From positions 1 through 32,455 of the forward strand of contig JAADHO010000180.1 in the NCBI GenBank assembly GCA_013151775.1: 32,455 nt of DNA, written 5' to 3'. A program made the translations under genes and the position numbers. The number at the start of each line of letters is the position of its first letter. Within the stretch, counting starts at the first letter, position 1. The notes below the pieces were generated by a model. It was not told the DNA's origin. It ran no database searches and was given only the letters and a program-made list of their open reading frames with translations. Source of the stretch: Deltaproteobacteria bacterium. GTDB lineage: Bacteria; Myxococcota_A; Polyangia; Polyangiales; Houyiibacteriaceae. Below are positions 3,243 to 32,455 of the stretch, piece after piece.

Positions 3243-3370
3243 GGCTCCTCCTAAGAGTCGAAGCGAGAACCTAGCAGCTTCCGTGCCAGCGTCGGCACGC
3301 GCAACAAAAACAGCCTCTCGCCGCTCGCCGCGCAGGTCACGACGCGGAAGTGCGCACGGACGGTCGCACA

Positions 3371-3388
3371 TGTGGCGAAATCGCCACA
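3371..3388 (-). terminator. Perfect 18-bp inverted repeat after the TetR gene
   Basis: TGTGGCGA and TCGCCACA flank a 2-base centre, forming an 8-bp stem (realistically 7 bp with a 4-base loop). It lies 6 bases beyond the TetR stop codon (3395) and about 130 bp upstream of the lipoprotein start at 3242. No T-run follows on the minus strand, so it could end the ten-gene operon in the manner of high-GC terminators, or be a binding site for the downstream gene. The symmetry is certain; the role is inferred. Confidence 0.5.
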
Positions 3389-3394
3389 GCTCCA

Positions 3395-4024: not shown

Positions 4025-4275
4025 CAGCTGCACTCCCGCGCGGCGCGCTCGTCCAGCCAGGCGTCGACGCGCGCGGCGATCACCGAGCGCACGTGCTCCA
4101 CCAGCTCGGGGATCTGCGCGTCGCAATACAGTCGATTCATCCACTGCATCTGATCCGGGCGCCAGACCTTCTGCATGGCCATCATGGCGGCCCACGCGAT
4201 GCCGCTGAGCAACAGCTCCTTGGCGTTCTCGACGGCGCTCAGGGGCGGCGTCTCTTGCTGAATCCGCATGTCCAT
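4024..4275 (-). CDS. 83-residue orphan protein of the lipid operon
   Basis: A short reading frame wedged between the lipid kinase and TetR genes with one-base TGATG overlaps at both ends (4275-4277 and 4024-4026). This is strong evidence that it is translated. The product appears mostly helical and soluble, with Met/Trp-rich residues in the middle (IAWAAMMAMQKVWRPDQMQW, about residues 26-45) and a charged C-terminus (AARVDAWLDERAARECS). There is no signal peptide, membrane segment or recognisable motif. It could be a small partner of the kinase or of another operon enzyme. I do not recognise a family. Confidence 0.72.
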   Translation of the reverse strand: MDMRIQQETPPLSAVENAKELLLSGIAWAAMMAMQKVWRPDQMQWMNRLYCDAQIPELVEHVRSVIAARVDAWLDERAARECS

Positions 4276-9643: not shown

Positions 9644-10779
9644 CAGGCCGCCTCCTCGACGCGCGCGGGCGGCAGCGGACGATAGGGGTAGCGATAGCCG
9701 ACGCCCTTGGCGTAGCGGTAGAGAGCGCCCGCGTACTCGGTGAAGGGCGTGGGCGCCATGCCCACCTCTTTCACGGCGCGGCTGTTGTCGAAGACCGTGT
9801 CGTAGGTGATGTAGGGCAGGAAGACCTTGAAGAGCGAGCCCACGAGGGTGAGCGTGTTGCGCCGCTTCATGCTCGCGAGCTGATTCATGGCGCTGCCAAA
9901 GGGGCCCTCGAGGGCGGGCACGAAGCGCGGCGCGCGGCGGCTGTTGCCGGAGGTCAGGGCCTCGGTGATCTGCCGGGCCGTGCACGCGCTCTCACCCGCG
10001 CTGAGGTGATAGATCTCGTGCTCGGTGACGTCCTTGGCGTGGATCGTGGCGATTGCGCGTCCGACCCAATCGGCGTTGACGATGTCGAGTCGCACGTCCG
10101 CGCGGAAGGGCAGGATGGGCATATCCGCGAGCACGCAGAACGCCCGCACCATGTCGAACTGAGAGGTCTCGGCCGTGCGCGAATCGCCCATGACGATGGA
10201 CGGGCGGAGGAAGGTCTTGGGCACCTCGGGCAAGAGGCGGCGCACCATGTGCTCGGCGAACTTCTTGGTGCGGGCGTAGGGATCGTAGTCGGAGCGTGCC
10301 CAGTCGATCGCCTCGTCCTCCTGCACGACCTCGCGATCGCGCTGACCGGCGACCGCCACGGTGGAGACATGGCTGAAGCGACGCAGGCCGGTCAGGTCCT
10401 TGGCTGCGCGCGCAAACTCGATCACGGAGAGCGTGCCTCGTAGGTTGTGGTTGAGGCAGGCCTTCTCGCTCTTGCGATTCAAGGAGGCGGCGATGTGCAG
10501 CACGGAGTCGCACTCGCGCGTGAGCCGCTCGTAAGAGCTCGCCTCGATGCCGAGGTTGGTCGCCGTGAGGTCTCCTGGCACGAGCTCGATGCGCGGCAAG
10601 AAGGATCGAAACGTGTCGGCGTCCATGTGCTGCTGCAGACCGCGCCAGAGCTTCTCGACGCCTTCCGCGTCGCTCTTGGCGCGCGTGAGCACGGCCACCC
10701 GCTCATCGCTCTCGCGCATCATCACGTCGAGGACGTAGGAACCGAGGTAACCGGTCGCGCCGGTGATGAAGGTGGTCAT
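9643..10779 (-). CDS. NAD(P)-dependent epimerase/thioester-reductase-like SDR protein
   Basis: A 378-residue extended short-chain dehydrogenase. The N-terminal nucleotide-binding motif TGATGYLG (6-13) is followed by the typical second-strand segment and HIAASLN. The active site has Ser139 in HVSTVAVAG, Tyr168 and Lys172 in YARTK. The pattern best fits the NAD_binding_4 group, which holds thioester reductases and fatty acyl reductases, though a sugar or lipid epimerase is also possible. The ATG at 10779 overlaps the stop of the preceding acyl reductase gene as ATGA. Two related reductases side by side suggest consecutive reductions, for example acyl thioester to aldehyde to alcohol. Confidence 0.85.
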   Translation of the reverse strand: MTTFITGATGYLGSYVLDVMMRESDERVAVLTRAKSDAEGVEKLWRGLQQHMDADTFRSFLPRIELVPGDLTATNLGIEASSYERLTRECDSVLHIAASLNRKSEKACLNHNLRGTLSVIEFARAAKDLTGLRRFSHVSTVAVAGQRDREVVQEDEAIDWARSDYDPYARTKKFAEHMVRRLLPEVPKTFLRPSIVMGDSRTAETSQFDMVRAFCVLADMPILPFRADVRLDIVNADWVGRAIATIHAKDVTEHEIYHLSAGESACTARQITEALTSGNSRRAPRFVPALEGPFGSAMNQLASMKRRNTLTLVGSLFKVFLPYITYDTVFDNSRAVKEVGMAPTPFTEYAGALYRYAKGVGYRYPYRPLPPARVEEAA

Positions 10780-12455
10780 GCGCTCGCGCTCCTCTGGGAT
10801 CTACGACCCTCGGCGGCCTCGGAATGCGTCGCGAGTCCACGGCGCTTCTCATCGACGTTCTCCCCGAGCTTTTCCTCCGCGCGCCTGCGCCCCGCGCGAC
10901 GACTCCCGTGGGCCAGGGGCAGGGGTTCGTCCTCCGGCACGCTGTCTCCCTTGAGCAGCGGGATGCACCAGGTCTCGAGCCCGGGGACTTGCACGTCGAG
11001 CCAATAGCGACGCCAGTCGATATCGTCCACGTCGAAGCCAAAGAGCTGCCGCTCGGCGTCGTCGAGGCGACGCGTCGCGGCGGGCAAAGCTTCGGTCTCG
11101 TAGATCCAGTCGTGGTCGTGAATGAAGGGCCGGTAGGTGCGCAGCATGTCGTCCACGCGCCCGAGCTGACGGTCGAGGTTGCGACACTTCATGGAGGCCG
11201 ACTTCATGCGTCGATTGAGCGAGTCGGCGAGCTCACCGCGCATACGCTCCGGCAGAGCGTTCGCCGCGTCGCGACCCTTGAGCAGCGCCCGCAGAGATCG
11301 CGCCACTCGCCGCACCGTGTGCACGTCGAGGAAGCGCTCTTGATCGGCCTCCACGGGGCGCCCCTCGAGGTGACGCAACACCAAGGACTCGAAGGCCGTG
11401 GCCTGCTCGCGCCCGTGGATGCGACGCCACGCCAAGGCCGTGAGCTCCACCGCACGACCGAAGCTCAGCGGGTTCCGCTGACTCGACGCCACGTGGTAAA
11501 TTTCGCGGCCTTCACCGCGCATGGACTCGGCGGCAGCCAAGGTCATGCTGCGCGCGACCGTGTCCACCGGCACCACGTCGAAGCGATTGGTCGGCCGGGA
11601 CGGGAAGCGACAGAAGGTCGTGCCGAGCAGCCAGACCAGTGGGCCCGAGGTGTTGATGCCCTCGTTCCAGCCGAGCATGGGGAAGCTGCGCGCGCACTCG
11701 ACGATGGCGGGCCGCACGATGGAGACGTCGAGCTCGGGAATGGTGAGCAAGAGATGCTCGGCCAGGCCCTTGGTGTAGGTGTAGATGTTGGGCCAGCCCA
11801 GACGCTGTCCGCGTGCCATGGCGTGGTCCGTGCGCGCGCGGACGCTGTCCAGCGGCAGCATCTCCGCGCTCAGCTCGTCGAGCTCCTGACGCGGATCGAA
11901 CTTCACCCCCAAGGGTGAGACGCCATGCTCGAGAAATTCGGGCACCTCGCGCGACGGTCGACCGGCTACGAAGCAGGTGGAGATGTGGATCATGCGCTTG
12001 CCGGCGCTGCGCTTGGCGAGCTCCGCCACGTTCAGCGCGCCGCGCAAGTTGGCCTCGATGGCCAAGGGCGGATCGGGCTCGAAGTCGGTCAGGCCCGCGA
12101 CGTGCACCACGAGGTCCACGTCAGACATCAGGCGACTCGCCTCGGCCTCCGAGAGCCCGCAGAGATCGGCGCTCAGACACGCCTCCACCACGTCGACCTT
12201 CTCACTCAGGACCTCGCGAAAGTCGGGCCCATGGAGCGCGCGGAAGGGACGCAGCGCGGGCGAGCGCTCGGCGATCTCCTCGAAGCGCGCTTTGGCGTCC
12301 ACACCCTTGCGGCCACGCGCCAGCAGAGTCATGCGGCGGATCTCGGGCAGCTCGGTCAGGAGCATGGAGAGCCAGACCTTGCCCAAGAAGCCCGTCACAC
12401 CCGTGATCAGGATGTGCTTCCCTCGAAAGGTCTCGGCGATACGCAATGGCTCCAT
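10776..12455 (-). CDS. Fatty acyl-CoA/ACP reductase (FAR-like, male-sterility type)
   Basis: A 559-residue protein starting at ATG 12455. An in-frame TTG lies two codons upstream at 12461, but the ATG sits 8 bases after a GGAG ribosome site. The Rossmann motif TGVTGFLG (18-25) and the catalytic pair Tyr225/Lys229 in YTYTKG identify the extended SDR reductases that turn fatty acyl thioesters into alcohols or aldehydes. The first part also contains HVAGLTDF and HISTCFVAG, typical of this family. The C-terminal third (about 340-540) is a FAR-type helical region with YRPFIHDHDWIYETE and DVDDIDWRRYW. It ends in a highly charged tail. Together with the linked ligase and carrier protein it defines this operon as making a reduced acyl chain. 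Confidence 0.88.
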   Translation of the reverse strand: MEPLRIAETFRGKHILITGVTGFLGKVWLSMLLTELPEIRRMTLLARGRKGVDAKARFEEIAERSPALRPFRALHGPDFREVLSEKVDVVEACLSADLCGLSEAEASRLMSDVDLVVHVAGLTDFEPDPPLAIEANLRGALNVAELAKRSAGKRMIHISTCFVAGRPSREVPEFLEHGVSPLGVKFDPRQELDELSAEMLPLDSVRARTDHAMARGQRLGWPNIYTYTKGLAEHLLLTIPELDVSIVRPAIVECARSFPMLGWNEGINTSGPLVWLLGTTFCRFPSRPTNRFDVVPVDTVARSMTLAAAESMRGEGREIYHVASSQRNPLSFGRAVELTALAWRRIHGREQATAFESLVLRHLEGRPVEADQERFLDVHTVRRVARSLRALLKGRDAANALPERMRGELADSLNRRMKSASMKCRNLDRQLGRVDDMLRTYRPFIHDHDWIYETEALPAATRRLDDAERQLFGFDVDDIDWRRYWLDVQVPGLETWCIPLLKGDSVPEDEPLPLAHGSRRAGRRRAEEKLGENVDEKRRGLATHSEAAEGRRSQRSASA

Positions 12456-12457
12456 GC

Positions 12458-13117
12458 TCAACGCTCCACCACGGGCCAGTCGTTGTCGCGGGCGATGCGA
12501 CGTAAGCGGAAATCCGGCGCGACGGCGCAGGGCTTGCCGATGGCGCTGAGCAAGAGGCTGTCACCGCCGCGGGCGCCATAGGCCCAGGAGAGATCGAGGT
12601 CGATGTCGTTCGCCTTGGCGAAGCCGCGCGCCCACTGACCCGCGAGGTTTCCGCCGACGACCGGCTCCTCGAGGCGGCCCGTGGCCTTGCTGCGAGTGAT
12701 CTCGAGCCGATTGCAGATCAGGTCGTCCGCCTCGAGGTCGTCGGCGAAGCGCCCGGCGATCTGCTCGATGTTGTCGCTGACGAGCACGATACGGCGTCCG
12801 TCCTTGCGCGCCCGCCGCAGCAGGCGCTTGCCCACGTCGAGCAGCTCGTCCTTCACGAAGTCGTCGTAGTACTCCTCGGCGAGCACCTCGACCCGATCCT
12901 CGGTCATGCCGCGCAGGCCCATCCAGGTGATGCGCGTGGCGGTGGCGCCGCTCGCCAAGGAGCCGGCGAAGCTGAGGGGCGCAGCCAGGGCCACGTTGCC
13001 GAGGCGCAGAGCGCGCTCGCCCAGACCACGGGCGTTGCCCGCGAGCCAGGCGGCGGCGGCCAGGGCGGGACGATCGAGGAGCGTCCCTTCGACGCGAAAG
13101 AAGGCAGCTTGGTGCAC
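12458..13117 (-). CDS. HAD-superfamily subfamily IB protein with degenerate active site
   Basis: A 219-residue protein with the overall layout of SerB-like HAD-IB phosphatases, but with altered catalytic motifs. Motif I, normally DxDGT, reads RVEGT (Arg8, Glu10), so the nucleophilic Asp is missing. Motif II keeps Ser114 in VLVSDN. The usual motif III lysine is not evident in GGNLAGQWARGF. Motif IV (YGARGGDSLLLSAIG) keeps one of two aspartates (Asp186). Phosphatase activity is therefore doubtful; it may act as a regulatory or scaffold partner of the reductase encoded next. It is the first gene of the operon, with GTG start at 13117 and an AGGAGT ribosome site. The stop lies 2 bases before the reductase ATG. 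Confidence 0.82.
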   Translation of the reverse strand: MHQAAFFRVEGTLLDRPALAAAAWLAGNARGLGERALRLGNVALAAPLSFAGSLASGATATRITWMGLRGMTEDRVEVLAEEYYDDFVKDELLDVGKRLLRRARKDGRRIVLVSDNIEQIAGRFADDLEADDLICNRLEITRSKATGRLEEPVVGGNLAGQWARGFAKANDIDLDLSWAYGARGGDSLLLSAIGKPCAVAPDFRLRRIARDNDWPVVER

Positions 13118-20577: not shown

Positions 20578-22314
20578 TCAGAGGAAGTGGCAGTCCGAGC
20601 AGGGCAGGTCGGGTGGATCCGTGTCCCACTCCGCCGAGGCGGGGTGTGCCGCGTCTCCGTGGCAGTAGAGGTTCGCACAGACTCCCGTCACGGGGTCGTA
20701 GGTCGCCACCGGGTTCTTGCCGTCGAAGACGACCTCCGCCCTTCCGTCTCCGTCGATGTGACCGGGGCTCAGCGCCGACGTCGGCTTCACGTGGCAGCGG
20801 GTGCAATCCCAACCACCGTGCCAGGTGACGTGCTCCATGTGAGCGCCGACGGCCAGAGTCAGCCGCCCCGTGCGACCGTCGACGGCAGCGGCCGGAGCGC
20901 CCGTCATGTTGTCCGTGCCGCCGTGGCAGAAGGTGCAGTTGGTCTGCCAGCCGGGATGGCAGCTCTCGCACGAGACGCCCACGAGACCGCCCGTGAGGTC
21001 GGCGCCGTGACAGGCTTGGCAGGTCGAGAGGCCCGTGCGGTCGGCCGTCAGGCCGTGGGCGCTCGGGTCACGCCAGCCGTCGGGGTGATTCGAGATCACC
21101 TCCACGACGCCATCGATGTGACGGGCCGGATCGATGATGGCGCCGCTCTCATCAACGCTGGGATGGCAGATCGAGCACTGCGTCAGGCTCGGATGTGACC
21201 CGCCGGGCGGCAGGCTGTGGCATGTGCCGCAAGCGGCCTGAGTGCCGTCGACCGTGGTCCACTCGGGGGTGGTATTGCTGCCACCGGGGAGCAAGGTCTC
21301 GCCGTGGCAGTAGACGCCGCTGCAGGTCGTGCCGTCCCAGACGGGCGTGGCGCCGTCGGTCGTCGCCAGCGCGCCCCAGGTCAGCTCTGCAGGACGAGGC
21401 GTGTCGATGTGGCCCGTGGCGAAGACGCCAGCGCCCGCTAGGTCGGGGACGAGATGACAATCCTCGCACAGCACCTGCCGATGCCAGTCCGAGGCAGCCA
21501 GGTGACTTCGATGGGCGCCGACGCTGCGCACCTCGGTGCTCGTCCGGCCGCTGGTGTCGCGTGGAGGGGCAGGTATTCCGTCCGAGCCGTGGCAGCTGGT
21601 GCAGGTCAGGTCGCTGATCTCCAGGTCGAGCTGACCGTCGATATGTCGCTCGGGAGCGACGATGCTCCAGGAGGCGTCGATGGTCGGATGACAGACCTGG
21701 CAGCCGTCGTACTTGGGATGGGTGCCGCCAGGGGGCAAGCTGTGGCAGGTGCCGCAGAAGCCCTGCGTGCCGTCGACGACGGTCCACTTGGGCGTCGTGT
21801 TCGTTCCTCCTGGGTCCAGGCGCGAGCCATGACAGTAGACATCGGAGCAGCTCGTACCGTCGAAGCTCGGCTCGGCCCCGCGTTGCAGAGGAACGGTTCC
21901 CCACGTCAACTCGGCCGGCAGCGGCGTGTCGATGTGCCCCGGATCATCTACCTCCGTGGGCACGAGGTGGCAGTCCTCGCACTGCACCTGCCGATGCCAA
22001 TCGGAGCTGCTCAGGTGGCTGCGGTGAGCGCCCACGCCGCGCTCGCGGGTCGCCGTGTGCCCCGCGAGATCGAGCGGTGGCGCCGGGCTGGTCTCGTCGC
22101 CGTGGCAGTCGTCGCAGGCAGGTGGCGGGAGCGTTCCGACGGGTACGCCGGGCGGCCGCAGAGTCGGGCCGGCGTCGATGGCCGAGTCCAGGCTACCGTC
22201 CAGCGAGGCATCGAGTCCGGCGTCGAAGCCAGCATCCTCGCCGCCCGTGGACCCTCCGCACCCGACAGCGCCGCAGATCGCTAGTACTCCCAGCGTGACA
22301 ATCGAAATCTTCAC
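20578..22314 (-). CDS. Two-module multiheme c-type cytochrome lipoprotein (16 heme motifs)
   Basis: A 578-residue protein read from GTG 22314, which lies six bases after a GGGAGG ribosome site; the GTG at 22320 abuts that site. A signal peptide ends in AVGC (Cys19) and is followed by an Asp/Ala/Ser-rich linker, the layout of a surface lipoprotein. There are 13 CxxCH and 3 Cx4CH motifs. Two modules of about 173 residues carry five motifs each, and a C-terminal section carries six (CQACH, CESCH, CTFCH, CTRCH, CANLYCH, CSDCH). The Cx4CH...CxxCH pairing is typical of Geobacter-type repeat cytochromes. It lacks the last about 100 residues found in its two larger paralogues. It lies about 35 bp after the six-module gene, so the two are probably cotranscribed. 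Confidence 0.93.
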   Translation of the reverse strand: MKISIVTLGVLAICGAVGCGGSTGGEDAGFDAGLDASLDGSLDSAIDAGPTLRPPGVPVGTLPPPACDDCHGDETSPAPPLDLAGHTATRERGVGAHRSHLSSSDWHRQVQCEDCHLVPTEVDDPGHIDTPLPAELTWGTVPLQRGAEPSFDGTSCSDVYCHGSRLDPGGTNTTPKWTVVDGTQGFCGTCHSLPPGGTHPKYDGCQVCHPTIDASWSIVAPERHIDGQLDLEISDLTCTSCHGSDGIPAPPRDTSGRTSTEVRSVGAHRSHLAASDWHRQVLCEDCHLVPDLAGAGVFATGHIDTPRPAELTWGALATTDGATPVWDGTTCSGVYCHGETLLPGGSNTTPEWTTVDGTQAACGTCHSLPPGGSHPSLTQCSICHPSVDESGAIIDPARHIDGVVEVISNHPDGWRDPSAHGLTADRTGLSTCQACHGADLTGGLVGVSCESCHPGWQTNCTFCHGGTDNMTGAPAAAVDGRTGRLTLAVGAHMEHVTWHGGWDCTRCHVKPTSALSPGHIDGDGRAEVVFDGKNPVATYDPVTGVCANLYCHGDAAHPASAEWDTDPPDLPCSDCHFL

Positions 22315-22348
22315 GTGCACCCTCCCTCACTCAGACGAGTATCCTGTG

Positions 22349-25300
22349 TCAGTACCAACTCCTGTTTCCATGGCACGCCGGGTTGCACGAGGGCGCCGTC
22401 GTGCCCGAGCCAGGCGTGAAGGTTCCGCCGCGTCGCAGTGAGATCTCGGGCTGACCATCGACGTGAAGCGCCAAGCCGATGATGTTGCCCGAAGCGTCAA
22501 CCACGCTGGCGTGACACTCCACGCACCGGTAGCGCGAGCGCATACCCGCGATGTGACGATAGTGTTGTCCAGACATGGCTTGTAGATCCGTGCGCGACGA
22601 GCCGATGTAGGCGTGACAGGAGTTGCACTGAAGTGTCGGGTTGGTGTCCCAGTCTGCCGTGCCGAGGCGCGACGAACCGTTGCCGTGGCAGTAGAGGTTC
22701 GCGCACACACCCGTCGCCGGGTCGAAGGTGGCAGACGGGTTCATGGGATCGAAGATCACCTCGGCCTGTCCGTCGCCGTCGATGTGGCCCGGGCTGAGCG
22801 CGGACGTCGGCTTGGGGTTGTGGCAGCGCGTGCAGTCCCACGCCACATGCAGCGAGGTGGCGCCCACGTGCTCCGTGTGCGCGCCCACGGCGATGGTGTT
22901 GCGCCCCGTGCGACCGTCGACGGCCGCGGGCGGCGCGCCCGTCATGTTGTCCGTGCCGCCGTGGCAGAAGGTGCAGTTCGTCTTCCAACCCGGGTGGCAG
23001 CTCTCGCAGGAGACGCCCACGACGCCGCCACGCAGATCCGCGCCATGGCACGCTTGGCAAGAGCTGAAGCCGTTGTTGTTGGCGGTCGCTCCGTGTGAGG
23101 TCGGCGCACTCCAGCCCGTGGGGTGATTGGAGATGATGTCCACCACGCCGTTGATGTGCTTGGCGGGTTGGATGATCGTGCCCGCCGCGTCGGTGGTCGG
23201 GTGGCAGGTGGAGCAGTTGGTGCTCGTCGGATGCGTGCCGCCGGGAGGCAGACCGTGGCAGGTACCGCAGGCCGCCTGCGATCCGTCCACAGTGGTCCAG
23301 TTGGGCCGCGTGTTCGTGCCGCCCGGCAAGAGCGTCTCGCCGTGACAGTAGACGCCGCTGCAGGTCGTCCCGCTCATGCTCGGCGTCGCGCCGTTGGAGG
23401 TCGCGAGGCCTCCCCAGGTCAGCTCCGCGGGCAGCCCGGTGTCGATGTGTCCAGGTTGCGTGACGCTGGCGGGGACCATGTGGCAGTCCGAACAGATGAC
23501 CTCCTTGTGCCAACTCGACGTACCCAGGTGGCTCCGGTGAGCGCCCACGCCACGCCGAGTGGTCGCCGTGCCGCCGGTGGTGTCCCGTGGTGGAGCCGGG
23601 GTTCCGTCGGCCGCGGAGCCGTGGCAATCCGTGCAGCTGACGCGGCTGAAGTCGAGGTCCAAGACGCCGTTGATGTGGCGAGCCGGGTCCACGATGGTCA
23701 TGCCCGGCCCCATCGTCGGATGACAGACTTGGCAGTTGGTGGTGCGCGGATGGAAGCTCCCCGGAGGCGTGCTATGGCAGGTGCCGCAAGCCGCCTGCGA
23801 GCCATCGACGGTGGTCCAATTGGGCCGCGTATTCGTACCGCCCGGCATCAAGGTCGCGCCGTGGCAGTACACGCCGCTGCAGGTCGTGCCGCTGAACCTC
23901 GGGCTGGCCCGATCCGCCTTGGCCAGCGCGCCAAAGGTGAGCTCCGCGGGCAGAGCCGTGTCCAGATGGCCCACCGCGCCCACGCTCGTGGGTACGACGT
24001 GGCAGTCCGCGCAGACCACCTGCTTGTGCCAGGTCGAGGTGCCCAGATGACTGCGATGAGCGCCCACGCCGCGCACGTTGGTGTTGGTGTTGCCCTGCGT
24101 GTCCTGTGGTGGCGCCGGGGTTCCATCGGCCGCGGAACCGTGACAATCCGTGCAGGTGGCGCGCGAGAAGTCGATGTTGACGACGCCATTGATGTGGCGC
24201 GCGGGATCGGTGATCCGGAGGCCGTTGCCCATGGTCGGGTGACAGGCCTTGCAGTTCGTCGAACGGGGATGCCTGCCGCCCGGCGGCAGCCCGTGACAGG
24301 TGCCGCAGGTCGCCTGCGTGCCGTCCACGCGCGTCCAGTTGGGCGTGGTGTTCGAGCCGCCAGGCAAGAGCGTCTCACCGTGGCAGTACACGCCGCTGCA
24401 GGTCGTGCCGCTGAAGCGCGGAGACGCAGCATCCGCTCGCGCGAGCGCGCCCCAGGTCAGCTCTGCGGGCAAGGGCGAATCGAGATGGCCCACATCCATC
24501 ACGGCCGCGGGTACCACATGGCAGTCCGTGCAGACCACCTGCTTATGCCAGCTCGAGGGCCCCAGATGACTGCGGTGAGCGCCCACGCCGCGGGCGTTGG
24601 TCGTCGCATTGCCCGCCGTATCCCTCGGTGGTGCGGGCGTTCCGTCCGCCTCCGAGCCGTGGCAGGTGGTGCACGACGCGCTGCTCAGGTCCACGTCCAC
24701 CACACCGTTGATGTGACGTGAGGGATCCGCGATCGTCAGGCCCGTGCCCATGGTCGGGTGACAGCCCGCACAGTTCGTGTTGTTCGGGTGACCGCCTCTG
24801 GGGGGCGTGCTGTGACAGGTGCCGCAGGCCGCCTGCGTGCCGTCCACCGTCGTCCACGTGGGCTTGGTGTTCGAACCACCCGGCAAGAGCGTCTCACCGT
24901 GGCAGTACACGCCGCTGCAGGTCGTCCCGCTGAAGCTCGGCGTGGCGCCATCCGTCGTCGCTAGCGCGCCCCAGGTCAGCTCCGCGGGACGAGGCGTGTC
25001 GATATGACCGACGTCCATCACGGCGCTCGGCACCACGTGGCAGTCGGTGCACAGGATCTCTCGGTGCCAATCCGACGTCCCGAGGTGACTGCGGTGCGCG
25101 CCCACGCCACGCTGCGTGGTGTCCACATTGCCCGAGGTGTCGAAGGGTGGCGCCGGCGTGCCGTCCACGGCCGAGCCGTGACACGTGGTGCACGACGCGC
25201 TGCTCAGATCCACATCCACCACGCCGTCGATGTGACGCGAGGGATCGGTGATCGTCATCCCCGGGCCCATGGTCGGGTGGCAGCCGGAGCAGTTCGTGTT

Positions 25301-26473
25301 GTTCGGGTGACTCCCGCCCGGAGGCGTGCTGTGACACGTGCCGCACGCCGCCTGCGTGCCGTCCACCGTGGTCCACGTGGGCGTCGTGTTCGTGCCGCCC
25401 GGCAAGAGCGTCTCGCCGTGGCAGTAGACGCCGCTGCAGGTCGTGCCGCTCCAGTCGGGCGTCGCGCCATCCGTGGTCGACAGCGGACCCCACGTGACCT
25501 CCGCGGGACGCGGCGTGTCGATGTGGCCCGTCGCCCAGATCCCGCCTCCGGCCGGATCGGGGACGATGTGACAGGCCTCGCACTGTACCTCCTTGTGCCA
25601 ATCCGAAGGCCCGAGGTGACTGCGGTGCGCGCCGATCGAGCGCTCGGAGGTGTCCGTGCGCTGCGCCGTGTCACGCGGAGGAGCCGGCGTGCCATCGGCC
25701 TCCGAGCCGTGACAGCTCGTGCAGGTCAGCCCCGAGATGTCGAGGTCCAACATGCCGTCGATGTGCCGGTCGGGATCGGTGATCGTGCCCGACTCGTCGA
25801 TCGTCGAGTGACACGTGGCGCAGCGATCGTACTTCGGATGCGAACCCTCGGGAGGCACGCCGTGGCAGCTGCCGCAATACACCTGTGAGCCGTCCACGAT
25901 CGTCCAGGTCGGCGTCATCAGCGTGCCGCCTGGATCGAGGCGTGCGCCATGACAGTACACGTCCGAACAGCTCGTGCCGTCGAAGCTCGGAGACGCCCCA
26001 CGCGAGGTCGGCACGTCACCGAAGGTCAGCTCCGCGGGCCACGGGGTGTCGATGTGCCCCGGGTCGTCGACGGCCGTGGGCACGAGGTGACAATCCGAGC
26101 ACTGCACGTCCCGATGCCAGGAGGAGTCGTAGAGGTGATTGCGGTGCGCGCCCACGCCTCGCTCCGACGGGTCGATGCGCCCCTCGAGATCCACCGGCGG
26201 CGCCGAGCTCGTGCGATCGCCATGGCACTCGCTGCAGTCAGGACCTAGGGGCAGTTGACCCACGGGCGCCGTCGGACGCGTGGGCAGGAGATAGCCAGCA
26301 CCATCGAGCACGTCGCCGTCCACGACGTCGCCGTCGCCGGCCTGCGCGTCGAGCACGTCAGCGTCAGGGCCCGCGTCCAGATCCACAGCCGATCCACCGC
26401 TGCCACCACAGCCCGCCAGACCGAACGCCACTACAACCAGGGAAACGAGACGCCTGACGGCAATGCTCTTCAT
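22349..26473 (-). CDS. Six-module multiheme c-type cytochrome lipoprotein (38 heme-type motifs)
   Basis: A 1374-residue exported protein. The signal peptide ends in lipobox LAGC (Cys22) and is followed by an Asp-rich linker of about 35 residues. Six modules follow, each with five heme motifs in the order CxxCH, CxDCH, C-S-(G/D)-V-Y-C-H (Cx4CH), CG(T/S)CH, CxxCH. The C-terminal domain adds CQACH, CESCH, CTFCH, CTRCH, CANLYCH, CNSCH, CVECH and a final CNPACH, which is Cx3CH. The total is 30 CxxCH, 7 Cx4CH and 1 Cx3CH. Modules share GAHRSHL, WH, GHID, PAE(L/V)T(W/F)G, LLPGG and RHI(D/N)G. Such proteins carry electrons across the periplasm or on the cell surface; no partner oxidoreductase or porin is in the window. 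Its upstream DNA is nearly identical to that of the next cytochrome gene. Confidence 0.95.
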   Translation of the reverse strand: MKSIAVRRLVSLVVVAFGLAGCGGSGGSAVDLDAGPDADVLDAQAGDGDVVDGDVLDGAGYLLPTRPTAPVGQLPLGPDCSECHGDRTSSAPPVDLEGRIDPSERGVGAHRNHLYDSSWHRDVQCSDCHLVPTAVDDPGHIDTPWPAELTFGDVPTSRGASPSFDGTSCSDVYCHGARLDPGGTLMTPTWTIVDGSQVYCGSCHGVPPEGSHPKYDRCATCHSTIDESGTITDPDRHIDGMLDLDISGLTCTSCHGSEADGTPAPPRDTAQRTDTSERSIGAHRSHLGPSDWHKEVQCEACHIVPDPAGGGIWATGHIDTPRPAEVTWGPLSTTDGATPDWSGTTCSGVYCHGETLLPGGTNTTPTWTTVDGTQAACGTCHSTPPGGSHPNNTNCSGCHPTMGPGMTITDPSRHIDGVVDVDLSSASCTTCHGSAVDGTPAPPFDTSGNVDTTQRGVGAHRSHLGTSDWHREILCTDCHVVPSAVMDVGHIDTPRPAELTWGALATTDGATPSFSGTTCSGVYCHGETLLPGGSNTKPTWTTVDGTQAACGTCHSTPPRGGHPNNTNCAGCHPTMGTGLTIADPSRHINGVVDVDLSSASCTTCHGSEADGTPAPPRDTAGNATTNARGVGAHRSHLGPSSWHKQVVCTDCHVVPAAVMDVGHLDSPLPAELTWGALARADAASPRFSGTTCSGVYCHGETLLPGGSNTTPNWTRVDGTQATCGTCHGLPPGGRHPRSTNCKACHPTMGNGLRITDPARHINGVVNIDFSRATCTDCHGSAADGTPAPPQDTQGNTNTNVRGVGAHRSHLGTSTWHKQVVCADCHVVPTSVGAVGHLDTALPAELTFGALAKADRASPRFSGTTCSGVYCHGATLMPGGTNTRPNWTTVDGSQAACGTCHSTPPGSFHPRTTNCQVCHPTMGPGMTIVDPARHINGVLDLDFSRVSCTDCHGSAADGTPAPPRDTTGGTATTRRGVGAHRSHLGTSSWHKEVICSDCHMVPASVTQPGHIDTGLPAELTWGGLATSNGATPSMSGTTCSGVYCHGETLLPGGTNTRPNWTTVDGSQAACGTCHGLPPGGTHPTSTNCSTCHPTTDAAGTIIQPAKHINGVVDIISNHPTGWSAPTSHGATANNNGFSSCQACHGADLRGGVVGVSCESCHPGWKTNCTFCHGGTDNMTGAPPAAVDGRTGRNTIAVGAHTEHVGATSLHVAWDCTRCHNPKPTSALSPGHIDGDGQAEVIFDPMNPSATFDPATGVCANLYCHGNGSSRLGTADWDTNPTLQCNSCHAYIGSSRTDLQAMSGQHYRHIAGMRSRYRCVECHASVVDASGNIIGLALHVDGQPEISLRRGGTFTPGSGTTAPSCNPACHGNRSWY
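23160..26250 (-). repeat. Six tandem ~519-bp cytochrome modules
   Basis: The Cx4CH-encoding segment recurs close to positions 23345, 23865, 24383, 24901, 25421 and, in a diverged form, 25945. The period is therefore about 519 bp (173 codons). The first module differs most (CSDVYCH, LDPGG, VPPEG); the inner ones are highly alike at DNA level. The similarity explains several long shadow frames and is a substrate for recombination. Confidence 0.9.
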
Positions 26474-26497
26474 ACCCTTTAATCTCCTGTCTTCGGG

Positions 26498-26518
26498 TCG
26501 TCGCGCGGCGCGCCACGA
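26498..26518. promoter_or_regulatory. Near-perfect 21-bp palindrome, copy A
   Basis: Arms TCGT-C-GCGCG and CGCGC-C-ACGA around a central G pair at all positions but one. It starts 25 bp upstream of the cytochrome ATG, between the possible -10 and the start codon. An identical copy stands before the nine-module gene (32402-32422). It may be an operator or an RNA hairpin in the leader. Confidence 0.5.
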
Positions 26519-26679
26519 TCCCGCGTGTCCTCACCCATTAGATAGGATCGATCGGGCGGGCCTGCATTGCGCCGGACGCAACACGAAACGCGCATCCGTT
26601 GCGCCACGAGAGCAACTTCCTCAAAACCCGTGCATATTTTGCGCGTGGACGAGGTCGAGGACTCGCAGGACGAAATTCC

Positions 26680-26697
26680 GGCGACTCAGGAGCCGCC
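26680..26697 (-). terminator. Weak hairpin after the nine-module cytochrome gene
   Basis: On the minus strand GGCGGCT and AGTCGCC pair (one G-U) around a 4-base loop, 23 bases after the stop at 26721. A short AATTT follows two bases later. A modest terminator candidate. Confidence 0.4.
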
Positions 26698-26720
26698 TGG
26701 AGGTGCTTCCCGTGAGGAAC

Positions 26721-28166
26721 TCAGAGCCAGACCTCGTTTCCATGGCAGGCGGGGTTGCACGAGGGCGGACTGCCCGGCGTGAAGCGACCGCCGCGACGCA
26801 GGGAGACCTCGGGCTGACCGTTCACGTGCAGGGGCAGGCCGATGATGTTCCCGGACGAGTCCACCACCGTCGCGTGGCATTCGACGCAGGCGATGCCCTT
26901 GCCGCGCACGTGCTTCTCGTGCTTGCCCGACATCGCACGAAGGTCCGCCTTGGAAGACCACGTGTAGGCGTGACACGAGTCGCATTGCAGCGTCGGGTTC
27001 GTGTTCCAATCCGCCGTGCCCAGGCGCGACGAGCCGTTGCCGTGGCAGTAGAGGTTCGCGCACACGCCCGTCGCCGGGTCGTAGGTGGCCGACGGATTCA
27101 TCCAGTCGAAGATCACCTCCGCCTGACCGTCCCCGTCGATATGCCCGGGGCTCAGCGCGGAGGTCGGCTTCGGGTTGTGGCAGCGCGTACAATCCCACGC
27201 CACGTGCATCGACGTGCTGCCCACGTGCTCCGTGTGCGCGCCCACCGCGATCGTGTTGCGACCCGTCCGGCCGTCCACCGCCGCGGGCGGCGCCCCGGTC
27301 GCGTTGTCCACGCCGCCGTGACAGAAGGTGCAGTCCGTCTGCCAGCCCGGGTGACAGCTCTCGCAGGACACGCCGACCACGCCACCGCGGAGATCCGCGC
27401 CGTGGCACGCCTGGCAATTCGTGAAGCCCGTGTTGTTCGCCGTCATCCCGTGGGATGTGGGCGCGCTCCAGCCCGCCGGGTGGTTCGAGACGAGCTCGAC
27501 CGTGCCGTTGATGTGGATGGCCGGCTGAATGATCGTGCCCGAGGCGTTGGTCGTAGGATGGCACATGGAGCAATCGGTGACGGTCACGTGTGTTCCACCT
27601 GGAGGCAGCCCATGACACGTGCCGCAGGCCGCCTGCGAGCCGTTCACCGTCGTCCATGTGGGCGTGATGTTCGTGCCGCCCGGCTGGAGCGTCTGCCCGT
27701 GGCAATACACGCTGCAGCTCGTGCCGCTGAAGGTCGGAGTCGCGCCATCTGCGGTCGCCAGCGCGCCCCAGGTGAGCTCCGCCGGAAGCGCCGTGTCGAT
27801 GTGGCCCGTCGCCGTCACGCTCGCGGGCACCAGATGACAGTCCGTACAGACGACCTCCTTATGCCAGCCCGAGGTGCCGAGGTGGCTGCGGTGAGCGCCC
27901 ACGCCACGCACGGCGGTGGCCGTGTTGCCCGTGGTGTCCTGAGGAGGCGCGGGCGTGCCGTCCGCCGCCGAGCCGTGGCAGTCGGTGCACGACACTCCCG
28001 TCAGGTCGACGTCCACTACTCCGTTGATGTGACGCGCAGCGTCGACGATCGTCAGGCCCGCGCCCATGGTCGGGTGACACACGGAGCAGTTGCTGTTCCG
28101 CGGGTGCGTGCCAAGCGGAGGCGTGCCGTGGCAGGTGCCGCAGGCCGCCTGCGTGCCGTCGACCAC
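26721..28166 (-). CDS. C-terminal fragment of the broken nine-module multiheme cytochrome
   Basis: The frame opens at a GTG (28166) exactly at a deletion junction and runs 481 residues. It has no signal peptide, so it could not receive hemes as an independent protein. It begins within module 8 (VDGTQAACGTCH) and contains the last two motifs of that module, all of module 9, and a C-terminal domain matching the six-module paralogue (CQACH, CESCH, CTFCH, CTRCH, CANLYCH, CDSCH, CVECH, CNPACH). In total there are 15 heme-type motifs. In module 9 the usual CSGVYCH has lost one residue and reads CSVYCH, a Cx3CH. Adding seven bases at 28164/28165 joins it to the upstream fragment. Best read as part of one gene that is either mutated or wrongly sequenced. 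Confidence 0.85.
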   Translation of the reverse strand: MVDGTQAACGTCHGTPPLGTHPRNSNCSVCHPTMGAGLTIVDAARHINGVVDVDLTGVSCTDCHGSAADGTPAPPQDTTGNTATAVRGVGAHRSHLGTSGWHKEVVCTDCHLVPASVTATGHIDTALPAELTWGALATADGATPTFSGTSCSVYCHGQTLQPGGTNITPTWTTVNGSQAACGTCHGLPPGGTHVTVTDCSMCHPTTNASGTIIQPAIHINGTVELVSNHPAGWSAPTSHGMTANNTGFTNCQACHGADLRGGVVGVSCESCHPGWQTDCTFCHGGVDNATGAPPAAVDGRTGRNTIAVGAHTEHVGSTSMHVAWDCTRCHNPKPTSALSPGHIDGDGQAEVIFDWMNPSATYDPATGVCANLYCHGNGSSRLGTADWNTNPTLQCDSCHAYTWSSKADLRAMSGKHEKHVRGKGIACVECHATVVDSSGNIIGLPLHVNGQPEVSLRRGGRFTPGSPPSCNPACHGNEVWL

Positions 28167-31100
28167 ATGGGCGTGGTGTTGGTGCCGCCGGGGAGCAGCG
28201 TCTCGCCATGGCAGTAGACGCCGTTGCAGCTCGTGCCGTCAAAGCTCGGCGACGCCGCGTCGGCCTGCGCCAAGGTGCCGAAGGTCAGCTCCGCAGGCAG
28301 CGCCGTGTCGATATGACCCGCCGCCGTCACCGTCGCGGGCACGATGTGGCAGTCCGTGCACACCACCTGCTTGTGCCAGCTCGAGGTGCCCAGGTGACTG
28401 CGGTGCGCACCCACACTGCGGAAGCTCGTGGCGAGGCGCCCGCGCGTGTCTTGTGGAGGCGCGGGCGTGCCGTCCGCCGCCGAGCCGTGGCAGTCGGTGC
28501 ACGACACTCCGGAGAGGTCGAGGTCGACCACTCCGTTGATATGACGCGCCGGAATCGCAATGGTCAGCCCCGCGCCCATGGTCGGGTGACACACGGAGCA
28601 GTTGCTGTTGCGCGGATGCGTGCCGCCCGGAGGCGTGCCGTGACACGTCCCGCAGGCCGCCTGCGTACCGTTCACCGTCGTCCACGTGGGCGTGGTGTTG
28701 GTGCCACCGGGCAGCAACGTCTCGCCGTGACAGTAGACGCCGTTGCAGCTCGTGCCGTCAAAGCTCGGCGACGCTGCGTCCGCTCGCGCCAGGGCGCCCC
28801 AGGTCAGCTCCGCAGGCAGCGCCGTGTCGATGTGACCCGCCGCCGTCACCGTCGCGGGCACGATGTGGCAGTCCGTGCAGACCACCTGCTTGTGCCAAGT
28901 CGAGGTGCCCAGATGGCTTCGATGAGCGCCGACGCCACGCACACTCGTTGCCGTGTTCGAGGAGGTATCCTGCGGAGGCGCGGGCGTACCCGCCGCCGCC
29001 GAGCCATGGCAATCCGTGCACGTGGCGCCGGCAAGATCGAGATCGACCACGCCGTTGATGTGACGCGCGGGATCCGTGATGGTGAGGCCGCTCCCCATGG
29101 TGGGGTGACAGGCCGAGCAGCGGCTGCTGCGGGGATGCGTGCCACCCGGAGGCGTGCCGTGGCAGGTGCCGCACGCCGCCTGCGTGCCGTTCACCGTGCG
29201 CCAGTTCGGCGTCGTGTTGGTGCCGCCCGGGAGCAGCGTCTCGCCGTGGCAGTAGACGCCGCTGCAGGTCGTCCCGCTGAAGCTCGGCGACGCACCGTCC
29301 GCCGTAGCGAGAGCGCCCCAGGTCAGCTCCGCCGGCAGCGCCGTGTCCATGTGACCGACGGCGGTCACCGTCGCGGGCACCACGTGGCAGTCCGTACAGA
29401 CCACCTCCTTATGCCAGCCCGATGTGCCCAGGTGACTGCGGTGAGCGCCCACGCCTCGCCGAGCGGTCGCCGTGCCGCCGGTGGTGTCCCGCGGAGGAGC
29501 GGGCGTGCCGTCGGCCGCGGAGCCATGACAATCCGTACAGGTGGCTGAAGAGAAATCGAGATTGACCACGCCGTCGATGTGGCGAGCCGGATCCGTGATC
29601 GTCAGCCCCGCGCCCATGGTCGGGTGGCAGGTCGCGCAATTGCTGTTGCGCGGATGACGCCCACCGGGAGGCGTCCCGTGGCAGGTTCCGCAGGCCGCCT
29701 GCGTGCCGTCCACCGTCGTCCAATTCGGCGTCGTGTTACTGCCGCCGGGCAAGAGCGTCTCGCCGTGGCAGTACACTCCGCTGCAGGTCGTCCCGCTCAT
29801 GCTCGGAGACGCGCCATCGGCCGTGGCGAGCGCGCCCCAGGTCAGCTCCGCGGGAAGCGCCGAGTCGATGTGACCGGCCGCCGTCACCGTCGCAGGCACC
29901 ACGTGGCAGTCCGTGCAGACCACCTCCTTGTGCCAGCCCGAGGTGCCGAGATGGCTGCGGTGAGCGCCCACGCCGCGCACGCTCGTCACCACGTTGCCCG
30001 TCGTGTCCTGTGGTGGCGCCGGCGTGCCGTCGGCCGCGGAGCCGTGACACGTGGTGCACGATCCGCTGCCCAGGTCCAGGTCCACGACGCCGTTGATGTG
30101 ACGCGCTGGATCCGTGATGGTCATCCCCGGACCCATGGTCGGGTGACAGCCCGCGCAGTTGCTGTTGGTCGGGTGCGTGCCGCCCGGAGGCAGCCCGTGG
30201 CAGGTGCCGCAGGTCGCCTGCGTGCCGTCCACGCGCGTCCAGTTGGGCGTCGTATTCGTGCCGCCAGGCAAGAGCGTCTCGCCGTGGCAGTACACCCCGC
30301 TGCAGGTCGTCCCGCTGAAGGTGGGAGACGCCGCGTCGGCTCGCGCCAGCGCGCCCCAGGTCAGCTCCGCCGGGAGCGGCGTGTCGATGTGACCCACATC
30401 TGTCACCGCCGCCGGCACCACGTGGCAGTCCGTGCACACCACCTCCTTATGCCAGCTCGAGGTGCCTAGATGACTGCGGTGAGCGCCCACGCCGCGGGCG
30501 TTCGTCGTCGCGTTGCCCGCCGTGTCCTTGGGCGGCGCGGGCGTCCCATCCGCGGCCGAGCCGTGGCAGGTCGTGCACGACGCGCTGCTCAGGTCCACGT
30601 CCACCACGCCGTTGATGTGACGCGCCGGATCCGCGATCGTCAGGCCTGTGCCCATCGTCGGGTGACACGCCGAGCAGTTCGTGTTGTTCGGGTGACCACC
30701 CCCCGGAGGCAGCCCGTGGCAGGTGCCGCACGCTGCCTGCGTGCCGTCCACCGTCGTCCAGTTCGGAGTCGTATTCGTGCCGCCCGGCAAGAGCGTCTCA
30801 CCGTGGCAGTACACCCCGCTGCAGGTCGTCCCACTGAAGCTCGGAGACGCCGCGTCCGCCGTCGCCAGAGCACCGAAGGTCAGCTCAGCGGGTAGCGGCG
30901 TGTCGATGTGACCCACGTCCGAGACGGCGCCGGGGACCACATGACAATCCGTGCAGGTGACCTCGGCGTGCCAATCCGACGTCCCGAGGTGGCTGCGGTG
31001 AGCGCCCACGCCTCGCTGCGTGGTCGCCGTGCCACCGGTCGTGTCGCGTGGAGGCGCTGGCGTGCCGTCGAGTTCCGAGCCGTGACACGTCATGCAGCCG

Positions 31101-32140
31101 GCGCCGCTCAGGTCCAGGTCGACGACGCCGTCGATGTGACGCGACGGATCGGTGATCGTCATGCCCGGGCCCATCGTCGGGTGACAGCCCGCGCAGTCGG
31201 TCGAGTTCGGGTGACTCCCGCCCGGAGGCGTGCTGTGACACGTGCCGCACGCCGCCTGCGTGCCGTCCACCGTCGTCCACTCCGGCGTTGTGTTGCTGCC
31301 GCCAGGCAAGAGCGTCTCGCCGTGGCAGTACACCCCGCTGCAGGTCGTCCCGCTCCAGTCAGGAGTCGCCCCATCCGTCGTCGACAGCGGACCCCAGGTC
31401 ACCTCCGCCGGACGTGGCGTGTCGATATGACCCACCGCCCACACACCGCCGAGCACTGGATCGGGGACGATGTGACACGCCTCGCACTGCACCTCCTTGT
31501 GCCAATCCGAAGGCCCGAGGTGGCTGCGGTGCGCGCCCACCGTCCGCTCGGAGGTGTCCGTGCGATCCGACGTGTCACGCGGAGGAGCCGGCGTGCCGTC
31601 CGCCTCTGAGCCGTGGCAGCTCGTGCACGTCAGGCCCGAGATGTCGAGGTCCAACAGGCCGTCGACATGCCGGTCTGGATCCGTGATCGTACCCGACCCG
31701 TCGATCGTCGGGTGACAGACGGAGCAGCGATCGTACTTCGGGTGCGGACCCTCGGGCGGCACACCGTGGCAGCTGCCGCAATACGCTTGTGAGCCGTCCA
31801 CAATCGTCCAGGTCGGCGTCATCAGCGTGCCGCCTGGGTCCAGGCGCGTGCCATGACAGTACACATCCGAGCAGCTCGTTCCGTCGAAGCTCGGAGACGC
31901 CCCGCGCGACGTCGGCACGGCGCCGAAGGTCAGCTCCGCGGGCCACGGCGTGTCGATATGCCCCGGGTCGTCGATGCCCGTGGGCACGAGGTGGCAGTCC
32001 GTGCACACGATGTCGCGGTGCCACGACGAGTCGTAGAGGTGGTTGCGGTGCGCCCCCACGCCTCGCTCCGAAGGGTCGATGCGACCCTCGAGATCCATCG
32101 GGGGCGCCGAGCTCGTGCGATCGCCGTGGCACTCGCTGCA
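27520..32140 (-). repeat. Nine tandem ~519-bp cytochrome modules
   Basis: The Cx4CH-encoding segment recurs near 27707, 28213, 28735, 29255, 29770, 30292, 30809, 31328 and 31858, mostly 515-525 bp apart. The interval 27707-28213 is shorter because of the 7-base and 3-base deletions. Inner modules are very similar (for example the repeated TDCHGSAADGTPAPP and CGTCHG.PPGG.HP segments), which favours unequal crossing-over. Confidence 0.9.
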
Positions 32141-32377
32141 GTCCGGACCCAGGGGCAGGCGACCCACGGGCGCCGTCGGACGCGTGGGCAGGAGATAGCC
32201 GGCGCCATCGAGCACGTCGCCGTCCACGACGTCGCCGTCGCCGACCTGCGCGTCGAGAACGTCCGCGTCAGGGCCCGCGTCCAGATCCACAGCCGGTCCA
32301 CCGCTGCCACCGCAGCCCGCCAGACCGAGTGTCAATACAACTAGGCAAACGAGACGCCAAACGGCAATGCTCTTCAT
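28052..32377 (-). CDS. N-terminal fragment of the broken nine-module multiheme cytochrome lipoprotein
   Basis: Starts at ATG 32377 with a signal peptide almost identical to that of the six-module paralogue (lipobox LAGC, Cys22) and the same Asp-rich linker. Seven full modules of five heme motifs and the first three motifs of an eighth follow, 38 motifs in all. At 28165 the frame shifts; the last 36 residues (from STARRRPAAP) are out of frame and end at TGA 28052. Modules 7 and 8 use CNGVYCH for the Cx4CH site, and module 8 is the interrupted one. Together with 26721-28166 the intact gene would encode 1887 residues with 53 heme-type motifs: 51 CxxCH or Cx4CH and two Cx3CH. Predicted to be a surface or periplasmic electron carrier. 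As written it would be a truncated lipoprotein lacking the C-terminal domain. Confidence 0.88.
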   Translation of the reverse strand: MKSIAVWRLVCLVVLTLGLAGCGGSGGPAVDLDAGPDADVLDAQVGDGDVVDGDVLDGAGYLLPTRPTAPVGRLPLGPDCSECHGDRTSSAPPMDLEGRIDPSERGVGAHRNHLYDSSWHRDIVCTDCHLVPTGIDDPGHIDTPWPAELTFGAVPTSRGASPSFDGTSCSDVYCHGTRLDPGGTLMTPTWTIVDGSQAYCGSCHGVPPEGPHPKYDRCSVCHPTIDGSGTITDPDRHVDGLLDLDISGLTCTSCHGSEADGTPAPPRDTSDRTDTSERTVGAHRSHLGPSDWHKEVQCEACHIVPDPVLGGVWAVGHIDTPRPAEVTWGPLSTTDGATPDWSGTTCSGVYCHGETLLPGGSNTTPEWTTVDGTQAACGTCHSTPPGGSHPNSTDCAGCHPTMGPGMTITDPSRHIDGVVDLDLSGAGCMTCHGSELDGTPAPPRDTTGGTATTQRGVGAHRSHLGTSDWHAEVTCTDCHVVPGAVSDVGHIDTPLPAELTFGALATADAASPSFSGTTCSGVYCHGETLLPGGTNTTPNWTTVDGTQAACGTCHGLPPGGGHPNNTNCSACHPTMGTGLTIADPARHINGVVDVDLSSASCTTCHGSAADGTPAPPKDTAGNATTNARGVGAHRSHLGTSSWHKEVVCTDCHVVPAAVTDVGHIDTPLPAELTWGALARADAASPTFSGTTCSGVYCHGETLLPGGTNTTPNWTRVDGTQATCGTCHGLPPGGTHPTNSNCAGCHPTMGPGMTITDPARHINGVVDLDLGSGSCTTCHGSAADGTPAPPQDTTGNVVTSVRGVGAHRSHLGTSGWHKEVVCTDCHVVPATVTAAGHIDSALPAELTWGALATADGASPSMSGTTCSGVYCHGETLLPGGSNTTPNWTTVDGTQAACGTCHGTPPGGRHPRNSNCATCHPTMGAGLTITDPARHIDGVVNLDFSSATCTDCHGSAADGTPAPPRDTTGGTATARRGVGAHRSHLGTSGWHKEVVCTDCHVVPATVTAVGHMDTALPAELTWGALATADGASPSFSGTTCSGVYCHGETLLPGGTNTTPNWRTVNGTQAACGTCHGTPPGGTHPRSSRCSACHPTMGSGLTITDPARHINGVVDLDLAGATCTDCHGSAAAGTPAPPQDTSSNTATSVRGVGAHRSHLGTSTWHKQVVCTDCHIVPATVTAAGHIDTALPAELTWGALARADAASPSFDGTSCNGVYCHGETLLPGGTNTTPTWTTVNGTQAACGTCHGTPPGGTHPRNSNCSVCHPTMGAGLTIAIPARHINGVVDLDLSGVSCTDCHGSAADGTPAPPQDTRGRLATSFRSVGAHRSHLGTSSWHKQVVCTDCHIVPATVTAAGHIDTALPAELTFGTLAQADAASPSFDGTSCNGVYCHGETLLPGGTNTTPMWSTARRRPAAPATARLRLARTRGTATAPCVTRPWARA
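28164..28165 (-). other. Frameshift junction (7-base deletion) in the nine-module cytochrome gene
   Basis: Every other module has seven more bases between the codons for W-T and V-D-G-T-Q. Module 7, for example, reads ACC-GTCGTCC-ACGTGGG on the plus strand where module 8 reads ACC-ACATGGG. On the coding strand the missing piece is equivalent to ACCACGG, a segment bounded by GG on both sides, fitting slippage between 2-base repeats. Restoring it makes 26721-32377 exactly divisible by three. Confidence 0.9.
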
Positions 32378-32455
32378 ACCCTTTAATCTCCTGTATTCGG
32401 GTCGTCGCGCGGCGCGCCACGATCCCGCGTGTCCTCTCTATGTAGATACGATCAA
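32378..32455 (-). promoter_or_regulatory. Leader and promoter region of the nine-module cytochrome gene (cut by window end)
   Basis: The 60-odd bases before ATG 32377 match those before the six-module gene with only about one change up to the CCGCGTGTCCTC block, then diverge. It contains the same near-perfect palindrome (32402-32422) and a TATCTA on the minus strand (about 32443-32448). The upstream limit of the promoter is outside the window. Confidence 0.5.

What the first reader, a model, noticed from the sequence alone, without database searches (positions are those of the whole stretch)
20578..32377. Tandem array of three module-built multiheme cytochromes with 2, 6 and 9 modules
Three adjacent minus-strand lipoproteins share a signal-peptide/Asp-linker head, a variable number of about 173-residue five-heme modules and a common C-terminal heme section. 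Motif counts read directly are 16, 38 and 53 (the last after frame repair). Known: CxxCH binds c-type heme, and Cx4CH paired with CxxCH is typical of Geobacter-type repeat cytochromes. Inference: a series of surface cytochromes of stepped length, made by module duplication, serving as electron conduits or electron stores in an organism related to myxobacteria. No quinol oxidoreductase, porin or cytochrome maturation gene is within the window, so partners must be elsewhere.
Basis: partly seen in the sequence, partly recalled or inferred. Interest (0 to 1): 0.8.

Follow-up and report, generated by a model that had tools for sequence, protein, structure and literature searches.

The report
Four-gene ladder of modular heme lipoproteins
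An uncultured myxobacterial relative carries four side-by-side genes for lipid-anchored proteins built from 2, 4, 6 and 9 copies of the same five-heme unit, probably electron carriers of different lengths on the cell surface; the protein type is known, but a same-genome length series of four is unusual.

Summary
Genes C, B and A have 2, 6 and 9 modules of about 173 residues and 16, 38 and 53 heme-attachment motifs. It is also incomplete: the window's last 91 bases are identical to the first 91 of another contig, which carries a fourth paralog, D (4 modules, 28 motifs), most simply placed just upstream of A. The array is then D-A-B-C, 135 motifs.

Module trees show one origin. First, second and last modules match by position; A3/B3 and A4/B4 pair; A7/A8 are sisters. 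A is a mosaic: B-like 5' half, D-like 3' end. The frameshift in A is a 7-bp deletion; sequence after it still shows purifying selection, so it is recent or an assembly error.

Each module pairs five heme motifs with five conserved extra histidines, fitting a bis-His pentaheme unit. All genes match TIGR01904. The genome also holds heme-lyase genes and a porin-cytochrome cluster; related modular lipoproteins sit inside such clusters elsewhere.

Best reading: outer-surface electron relays of stepped length fed by that conduit. Surface location, heme loading and electron transfer are untested.

The parts
20578..22320 (-). gene C: lipoprotein cytochrome, 580 aa, 2 modules (starts at 22032 and 21519), 16 heme motifs; shortened C-terminal section from 20847 down to 20578
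22321..22348 (-). 28-bp gap between B and C, suggests co-transcription
22349..26473 (-). gene B: lipoprotein cytochrome, 1374 aa, 6 modules (starts 26152, 25633, 25102, 24583, 24064, 23545), C-terminal section 22885-22349, 38 heme motifs
26461..26549 (-). promoter/leader and first codons of B, 92% identical to those of A (32365-32453): the duplicated unit included its 5' region
28169..32377 (-). gene A, first frame (frame stays open to 28052): signal peptide, lipobox, Asp-rich linker, modules 1-7 and the first half of module 8 (starts 32056, 31537, 31006, 30487, 29968, 29449, 28930, 28411)
28163..28168 (-). frameshift in A: 7 bases fewer than sister modules; the missing ACGACGG would lie next to a near-copy TCGACGG
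26721..28163 (-). gene A, second frame: rest of module 8, module 9 (start 27899), C-terminal section 27242-26721; still under purifying selection
32365..32455 (-). 5' end and leader of A; identical to bases 1-91 of contig C353 (L009), which carries gene D (L009:303-3365 minus, 1020 aa, 4 modules, 28 motifs)

Best explanation
A tandem family (D-A-B-C) of outer-membrane lipoprotein multiheme c-type cytochromes. Each is a lipid anchor and flexible Asp-rich linker, then 4, 9, 6 or 2 copies of a bis-His pentaheme module, then a C-terminal heme section. Hemes in successive modules would form one continuous chain, so the protein acts as an electron relay reaching away from the outer membrane. Electrons would cross the outer membrane through a porin-cytochrome (Pcc) conduit encoded elsewhere (contig C422) and pass along the modules to an extracellular acceptor or neighbouring cytochromes; longer versions give more reach and also more storage. 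The ladder arose by tandem gene duplication and by duplication and recombination of internal modules while the end modules were kept. Shown: sequence anatomy, module homology, motif and histidine conservation, selection, family membership, presence of a conduit cluster and of maturation genes. Inferred: surface exposure, heme loading, a continuous heme chain, coupling to the C422 conduit, the acceptor.
For: Anatomy and counts. Lipobox-type N-termini LAGC/AVGC/TLGC followed by Asp/Gly-rich linkers in all four. 99 two-module stretches from the window and 28 related loci keep the five heme motifs per module, with H3, H6 and H130 invariant and H33 and H105 nearly so (equivalents in the second module), i.e. 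one distal His per heme. Position-specific module tree. dN/dS 0.13-0.23 throughout. TIGR01904 hits of 70-231 bits against a cut-off of 27. Related modular lipoproteins lie beside a barrel gene and an 11-heme cytochrome in L040, L051 and L066. In the same genome C422 has a TIGR01904 cytochrome, a protein predicted as a beta barrel of about 24 strands (pLDDT 82; best PDB matches outer-membrane ushers and porins) and a 12-heme cytochrome. All 12 other genomes with that barrel also carry module matches, against 115 of 379 genomes overall, and nearly every barrel locus has a cytochrome with 9-14 motifs beside it. Three PF01578 heme-lyase genes. Published Pcc clusters have just these parts, including outer-membrane cytochromes with CX3-4CH motifs (PMC4245776).
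Against: No barrel or periplasmic cytochrome is linked to the array; its neighbours are ClpB and a DHOD/PFOR pair. The two-module model has no match among solved structures, so a continuous heme chain is not shown. Gene A is frameshifted in this assembly. No expression or localisation data.
Confidence: 0.65

Rival explanations
1. Electron capacitors: the array mainly raises the number of hemes per cell to store charge when acceptors run out; length is only a by-product and reach does not matter.
For: 135 motifs in four genes; capacitor function is proposed for GSU1996-type heme nanowires (PMC10138318) and for 24/49-heme cytochromes (PMC7399161). The array is not linked to a conduit.
Against: Conserved first, second and last modules and a conserved C-terminal section suggest defined entry and exit ends. 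Relatives lie in conduit operons.
Confidence: 0.22
2. Periplasm-facing lipoproteins of the inner leaflet that carry electrons across the periplasm.
For: Localisation is not shown; GSU1996 and GSU2210 are long periplasmic modular cytochromes.
Against: CX4CH-rich TIGR01904 proteins occupy the outer-membrane cytochrome place in Pcc-like operons here, and published Pcc periplasmic cytochromes lack atypical motifs. Long Asp/Gly-rich linkers after the lipobox fit display away from the membrane (inference).
Confidence: 0.08
3. A decaying, recombining repeat array with little function: gene A is already broken and copy number drifts.
For: Frameshift in A; mosaic A; no array found in sampled genomes of the same family.
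Against: dN/dS 0.13-0.23 in all parts, and 0.14 after the frameshift, the same as for D against B. B, C and D are intact.
Confidence: 0.05

Closest known systems
CxxxxCH/CxxCH domain c-type cytochromes (TIGR01904, PF09698 GSu_C4xC__C2xCH)
   Same: All four proteins and their relatives match well above cut-off.
   Different: The family model covers 36-73 residues around two motifs; here the repeat unit is a 173-residue five-heme module with fixed end modules, in four tandem genes.
Pcc porin-cytochrome outer-membrane cytochromes (Geobacter OmcB/OmcC type; IALB_1837 of Ignavibacterium album), PMC4245776
   Same: Multiheme outer-membrane cytochromes with CX3-4CH motifs; homologues of the array genes sit with a barrel gene and an 11-14-heme periplasmic-type cytochrome.
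   Different: In that survey the Pcc outer-membrane cytochromes have 1-15 typical motifs; here 13-42. The array itself has no linked barrel.
Large cytochromes whose heme domains vary in number between relatives (24- and 49-heme proteins beside an OmbB-like porin, Burkholderiales; Chloroflexi), PMC7399161
   Same: Domain insertion/deletion changes heme number; two large cytochromes in tandem.
   Different: There the variation is between genomes; here four sizes stand side by side in one genome. No sequence comparison with those proteins was made.
Monomeric heme nanowires GSU1996 and GSU2210 of Geobacter (PMC10138318)
   Same: Head-to-tail heme modules in one chain.
   Different: Periplasmic triheme domains, one His-Met heme per domain; no sequence match found to any PDB chain.
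Tandem duplicated omcB and omcC clusters of Geobacter sulfurreducens (PMC4589669)
   Same: Tandem duplication of outer-membrane cytochrome genes.
   Different: There whole barrel-periplasmic-surface clusters are duplicated; here only the cytochrome, with changing module number.

Membership tests
TIGR01904 / PF09698 CxxxxCH/CxxCH cytochromes | Score above curated cut-off | tested here: met
   TIGR01904 70.5-231 bits vs 27; 25 PF09698 places in the genome, all over cut-off
TIGR01904 / PF09698 CxxxxCH/CxxCH cytochromes | Paired CX4CH and CX2CH motifs | tested here: met
   One CX4CH plus four CX2CH per module, except A9 (CX3CH)
c-type multiheme cytochrome | Covalently bound heme at each motif | not testable with these tools
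   Motifs, distal histidines and PF01578 lyases only
Outer-membrane lipoprotein cytochrome | Signal peptide with lipobox | tested here: met
   Read from sequence: LAGC (A, B), AVGC (C), TLGC (D); no dedicated predictor was run
Outer-membrane lipoprotein cytochrome | Exposure on the cell surface | not testable with these tools
   inferred from family and operon context
Porin-cytochrome (Pcc) cluster | Barrel gene beside periplasmic and outer-membrane cytochrome genes | tested here: not met
   None next to the array; met at C422 in the same genome
Polymerising nanowire cytochromes (OmcS/OmcE/OmcZ) | Sequence or fold similarity | tested here: inconclusive
   No match by sequence or Foldseek; loop-rich heme folds are hard for Foldseek

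The most novel reading that the evidence does not exclude
One cell makes surface electron wires in four set lengths (2, 4, 6 and 9 pentaheme modules) from one module stock, kept in variation by recombination between paralogs, and the 7-bp repeat in A lets its length switch between a 53-heme form and a shorter form without the C-terminal section.
Probability: 0.12. Interest if true: 0.75.

Novelty: new variant of a known kind. Interest (0 to 1): 0.5.

Why it matters
It is a natural length series: the same heme module in runs of 2, 4, 6 and 9 with the same end modules in one genome. That would let one test directly how conduction rate, reach and charge storage depend on the number of modules. 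It also shows how very long multiheme cytochromes grow: inner modules multiply while end modules stay fixed. It extends a Geobacter-type electron-transfer family to a Myxococcota lineage in which nearly all sampled family members lack the modular form.

Tried and rejected
Solved-structure searches by sequence found nothing credible; Foldseek and VIA-align on the two-module model found no match. The barrel of L040 has no match in the own genome; the own barrel is of another sequence group, related to L066. My first frame for the C422 barrel (2726-3802) was wrong and gave no family hit; the right frame is 2742-4061. Search for the ancestral (array-free) site: ClpB orthologs of relatives have no cytochrome, DHOD or PFOR beside them, and DHOD/PFOR pairs are kept together in other genomes, so no clean empty site was found. 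Contig C353's far end and the window's left end share no overlap with other contigs, so the 91-base overlap is not shown to be a general assembly feature. A promoter scan found nothing. A gathered collapse of identical repeats was considered for the A/D similarity and rejected: their 3' ends are 85% identical, not 100%.

Full report
OBSERVATION. C (20578-22320), B (22349-26473) and A (26721-32377, two frames), all minus strand, hold 16, 38 and 53 CH-type heme motifs; shuffled B and C proteins hold 0-3. Splitting at the GAHRxHL anchor gives 2, 6 and 9 modules spaced 171-177 residues. Motif number follows one head motif, five per module, two extra in the last module and a C-terminal section of five (three in C).

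A FOURTH GENE. The window is one whole contig, C106. Its last 91 bases are identical to the first 91 of contig C353, and the only other similar place in the genome is the 92% identical leader of gene B. C353 begins, on the minus strand, with the start codon and first codons of an A/B-type gene, a 289-bp gap and then gene D (L009:303-3365; 1020 aa, 4 modules, 28 motifs). So D is followed by an A/B-type gene in any case, and A is the simplest candidate. Upstream of D lie a dihydroorotate-dehydrogenase-like gene and a pyruvate:ferredoxin oxidoreductase, downstream of C lies ClpB, so D and C are the ends. The array is D(4)-A(9)-B(6)-C(2), 135 motifs. The join itself is an inference: the other ends of these contigs show no such overlaps.

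HOW IT GREW. In the module tree the four first modules form one group (100/100), the second modules of D, A and B another (100/98), the last modules another (100/99); A3/B3 and A4/B4 pair more weakly, and A7/A8 are sisters (100/98). C2 carries the insertion typical of second modules and the C-terminal end typical of last modules, so C is a two-module form in which second and last module are one. Thus end modules are kept by position and inner modules multiply. The A/B duplication took the leader along (92% over 89 bp). At the 5' end A and B are 88% identical and A and D 74%; at the 3' end A and D are 85% and A and B 79%; informative sites change from 105:15:15 for A+B at the 5' end to 33:27:23, leaning to A+D, at the 3' end. 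A is therefore a mosaic, as recombination between paralogs gives. In a tree of the C-terminal region D, A and B group together with moderate support (83/91), C outside.

FRAMESHIFT IN A. Sister modules read TGG ACG ACG GTN GAC GGC here; A lacks seven bases, which a slip between ACGACGG and TCGACGG would explain. After the shift dN/dS against B is 0.14, the same as D against B (0.14), and the other comparisons lie at 0.13-0.23. The change is recent or an assembly error; reads are needed.

MODULE CHEMISTRY. In an alignment of 99 two-module stretches from the window, its second contig and related loci, the five heme motifs of each module are invariant, and five further histidines per module (H3, H6, H33, H105, H130 in the first) are invariant or nearly so. 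One conserved distal histidine per heme fits bis-His hemes, an inference. AlphaFold2 gives a fairly confident two-module model (pLDDT 81, pTM 0.64) of mostly loops with short helices; nothing in the PDB matches. Heme positions could not be measured.

FAMILY AND SPREAD. All proteins match TIGR01904 and PF09698. Profile matches occur in 115 of 379 sampled Myxococcota genomes; within the family of this genome only members of one other genus match, and weakly. The closest modular relatives are single genes in other families of the order (G031: 4 modules, 28 motifs; G029). Among 78 loci of genome contigs no run longer than two adjacent CX4CH-rich genes was found, while single proteins with up to 80 motifs exist. 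So long proteins of this sort are not new; four paralogs of stepped size side by side were not seen elsewhere here, within that sample.

PARTNERS. Heme lyase PF01578 occurs at three places. Contig C422 holds a TIGR01904 lipoprotein cytochrome (12 motifs), then a 440-aa protein, a 12-motif cytochrome, a 9-motif cytochrome ending in a membrane anchor, and a 740-aa cytochrome whose open frame holds 33 CX2CH. The 440-aa protein is predicted as an outer-membrane barrel of about 24 strands (pLDDT 82), with ushers and porins as best matches. Relatives of that barrel in 12 other genomes stand beside cytochromes with 9-14 motifs in all but one locus examined, and all 12 genomes are among the carriers of the module profile. 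In L040, L051 and L066 the modular lipoprotein is itself next to a barrel gene and an 11-motif cytochrome. This is the layout of published Pcc clusters, where outer-membrane cytochromes carry atypical CX3-4CH motifs (PMC4245776).

MECHANISM. Most likely the proteins are lipid-anchored at the outer surface and pass electrons between a Pcc-type conduit and outside acceptors along a heme chain, with length setting reach and capacity (0.65). Storage as the main role is the chief rival (0.22). The steps from sequence to surface location, heme loading and electron flow are inferred.

NOVELTY. Variation in heme-domain number between relatives is published (PMC7399161), as are tandem outer-membrane cytochrome clusters (PMC4589669) and modular heme wires (PMC10138318). 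New here is the combination: one module stock in four lengths, in tandem, with fixed ends, in a Myxococcota genome. I rate it a new variant of a known kind.

Noticed in passing
L033:7720-11307 (G017:C13, same family): A relative repeats the C-terminal section instead of the five-heme module: four head-to-tail copies of about 258 residues, 28 motifs in one protein. A different part of the same protein type was multiplied.
   Followed up: partly
L010:6360-8582 (own genome, C422): 740-aa cytochrome with an N-terminal membrane segment; its open frame holds 33 CX2CH motifs, about 22 residues per heme.
   Followed up: partly
L064:9752-19120; L072:3026-11935; L078:3116-11929: Single frames of about 3,000 residues with 80, 72 and 72 heme motifs in other Myxococcota-type contigs.
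   Followed up: no
G001:C316 (same genus): The contig with the ClpB ortholog (89% identical) breaks within the first codons of clpB, just where the array would begin; it may have been lost from that assembly.
   Followed up: no
L009:3577-8173: Dihydroorotate-dehydrogenase-like gene and pyruvate:ferredoxin oxidoreductase upstream of D; the pair is kept together in five other genomes, two of which also carry modular cytochromes.
   Followed up: partly
window 9643-13117: Two fatty acyl-CoA reductase-like (male sterility domain) genes and a HAD-type hydrolase in a row, beside acyl-CoA enzymes: perhaps a lipid or wax pathway.
   Followed up: no
L034:10130-11167 (own genome, C360): 346-aa protein that is a stand-alone version of the C-terminal section (45% identical).
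   Followed up: no
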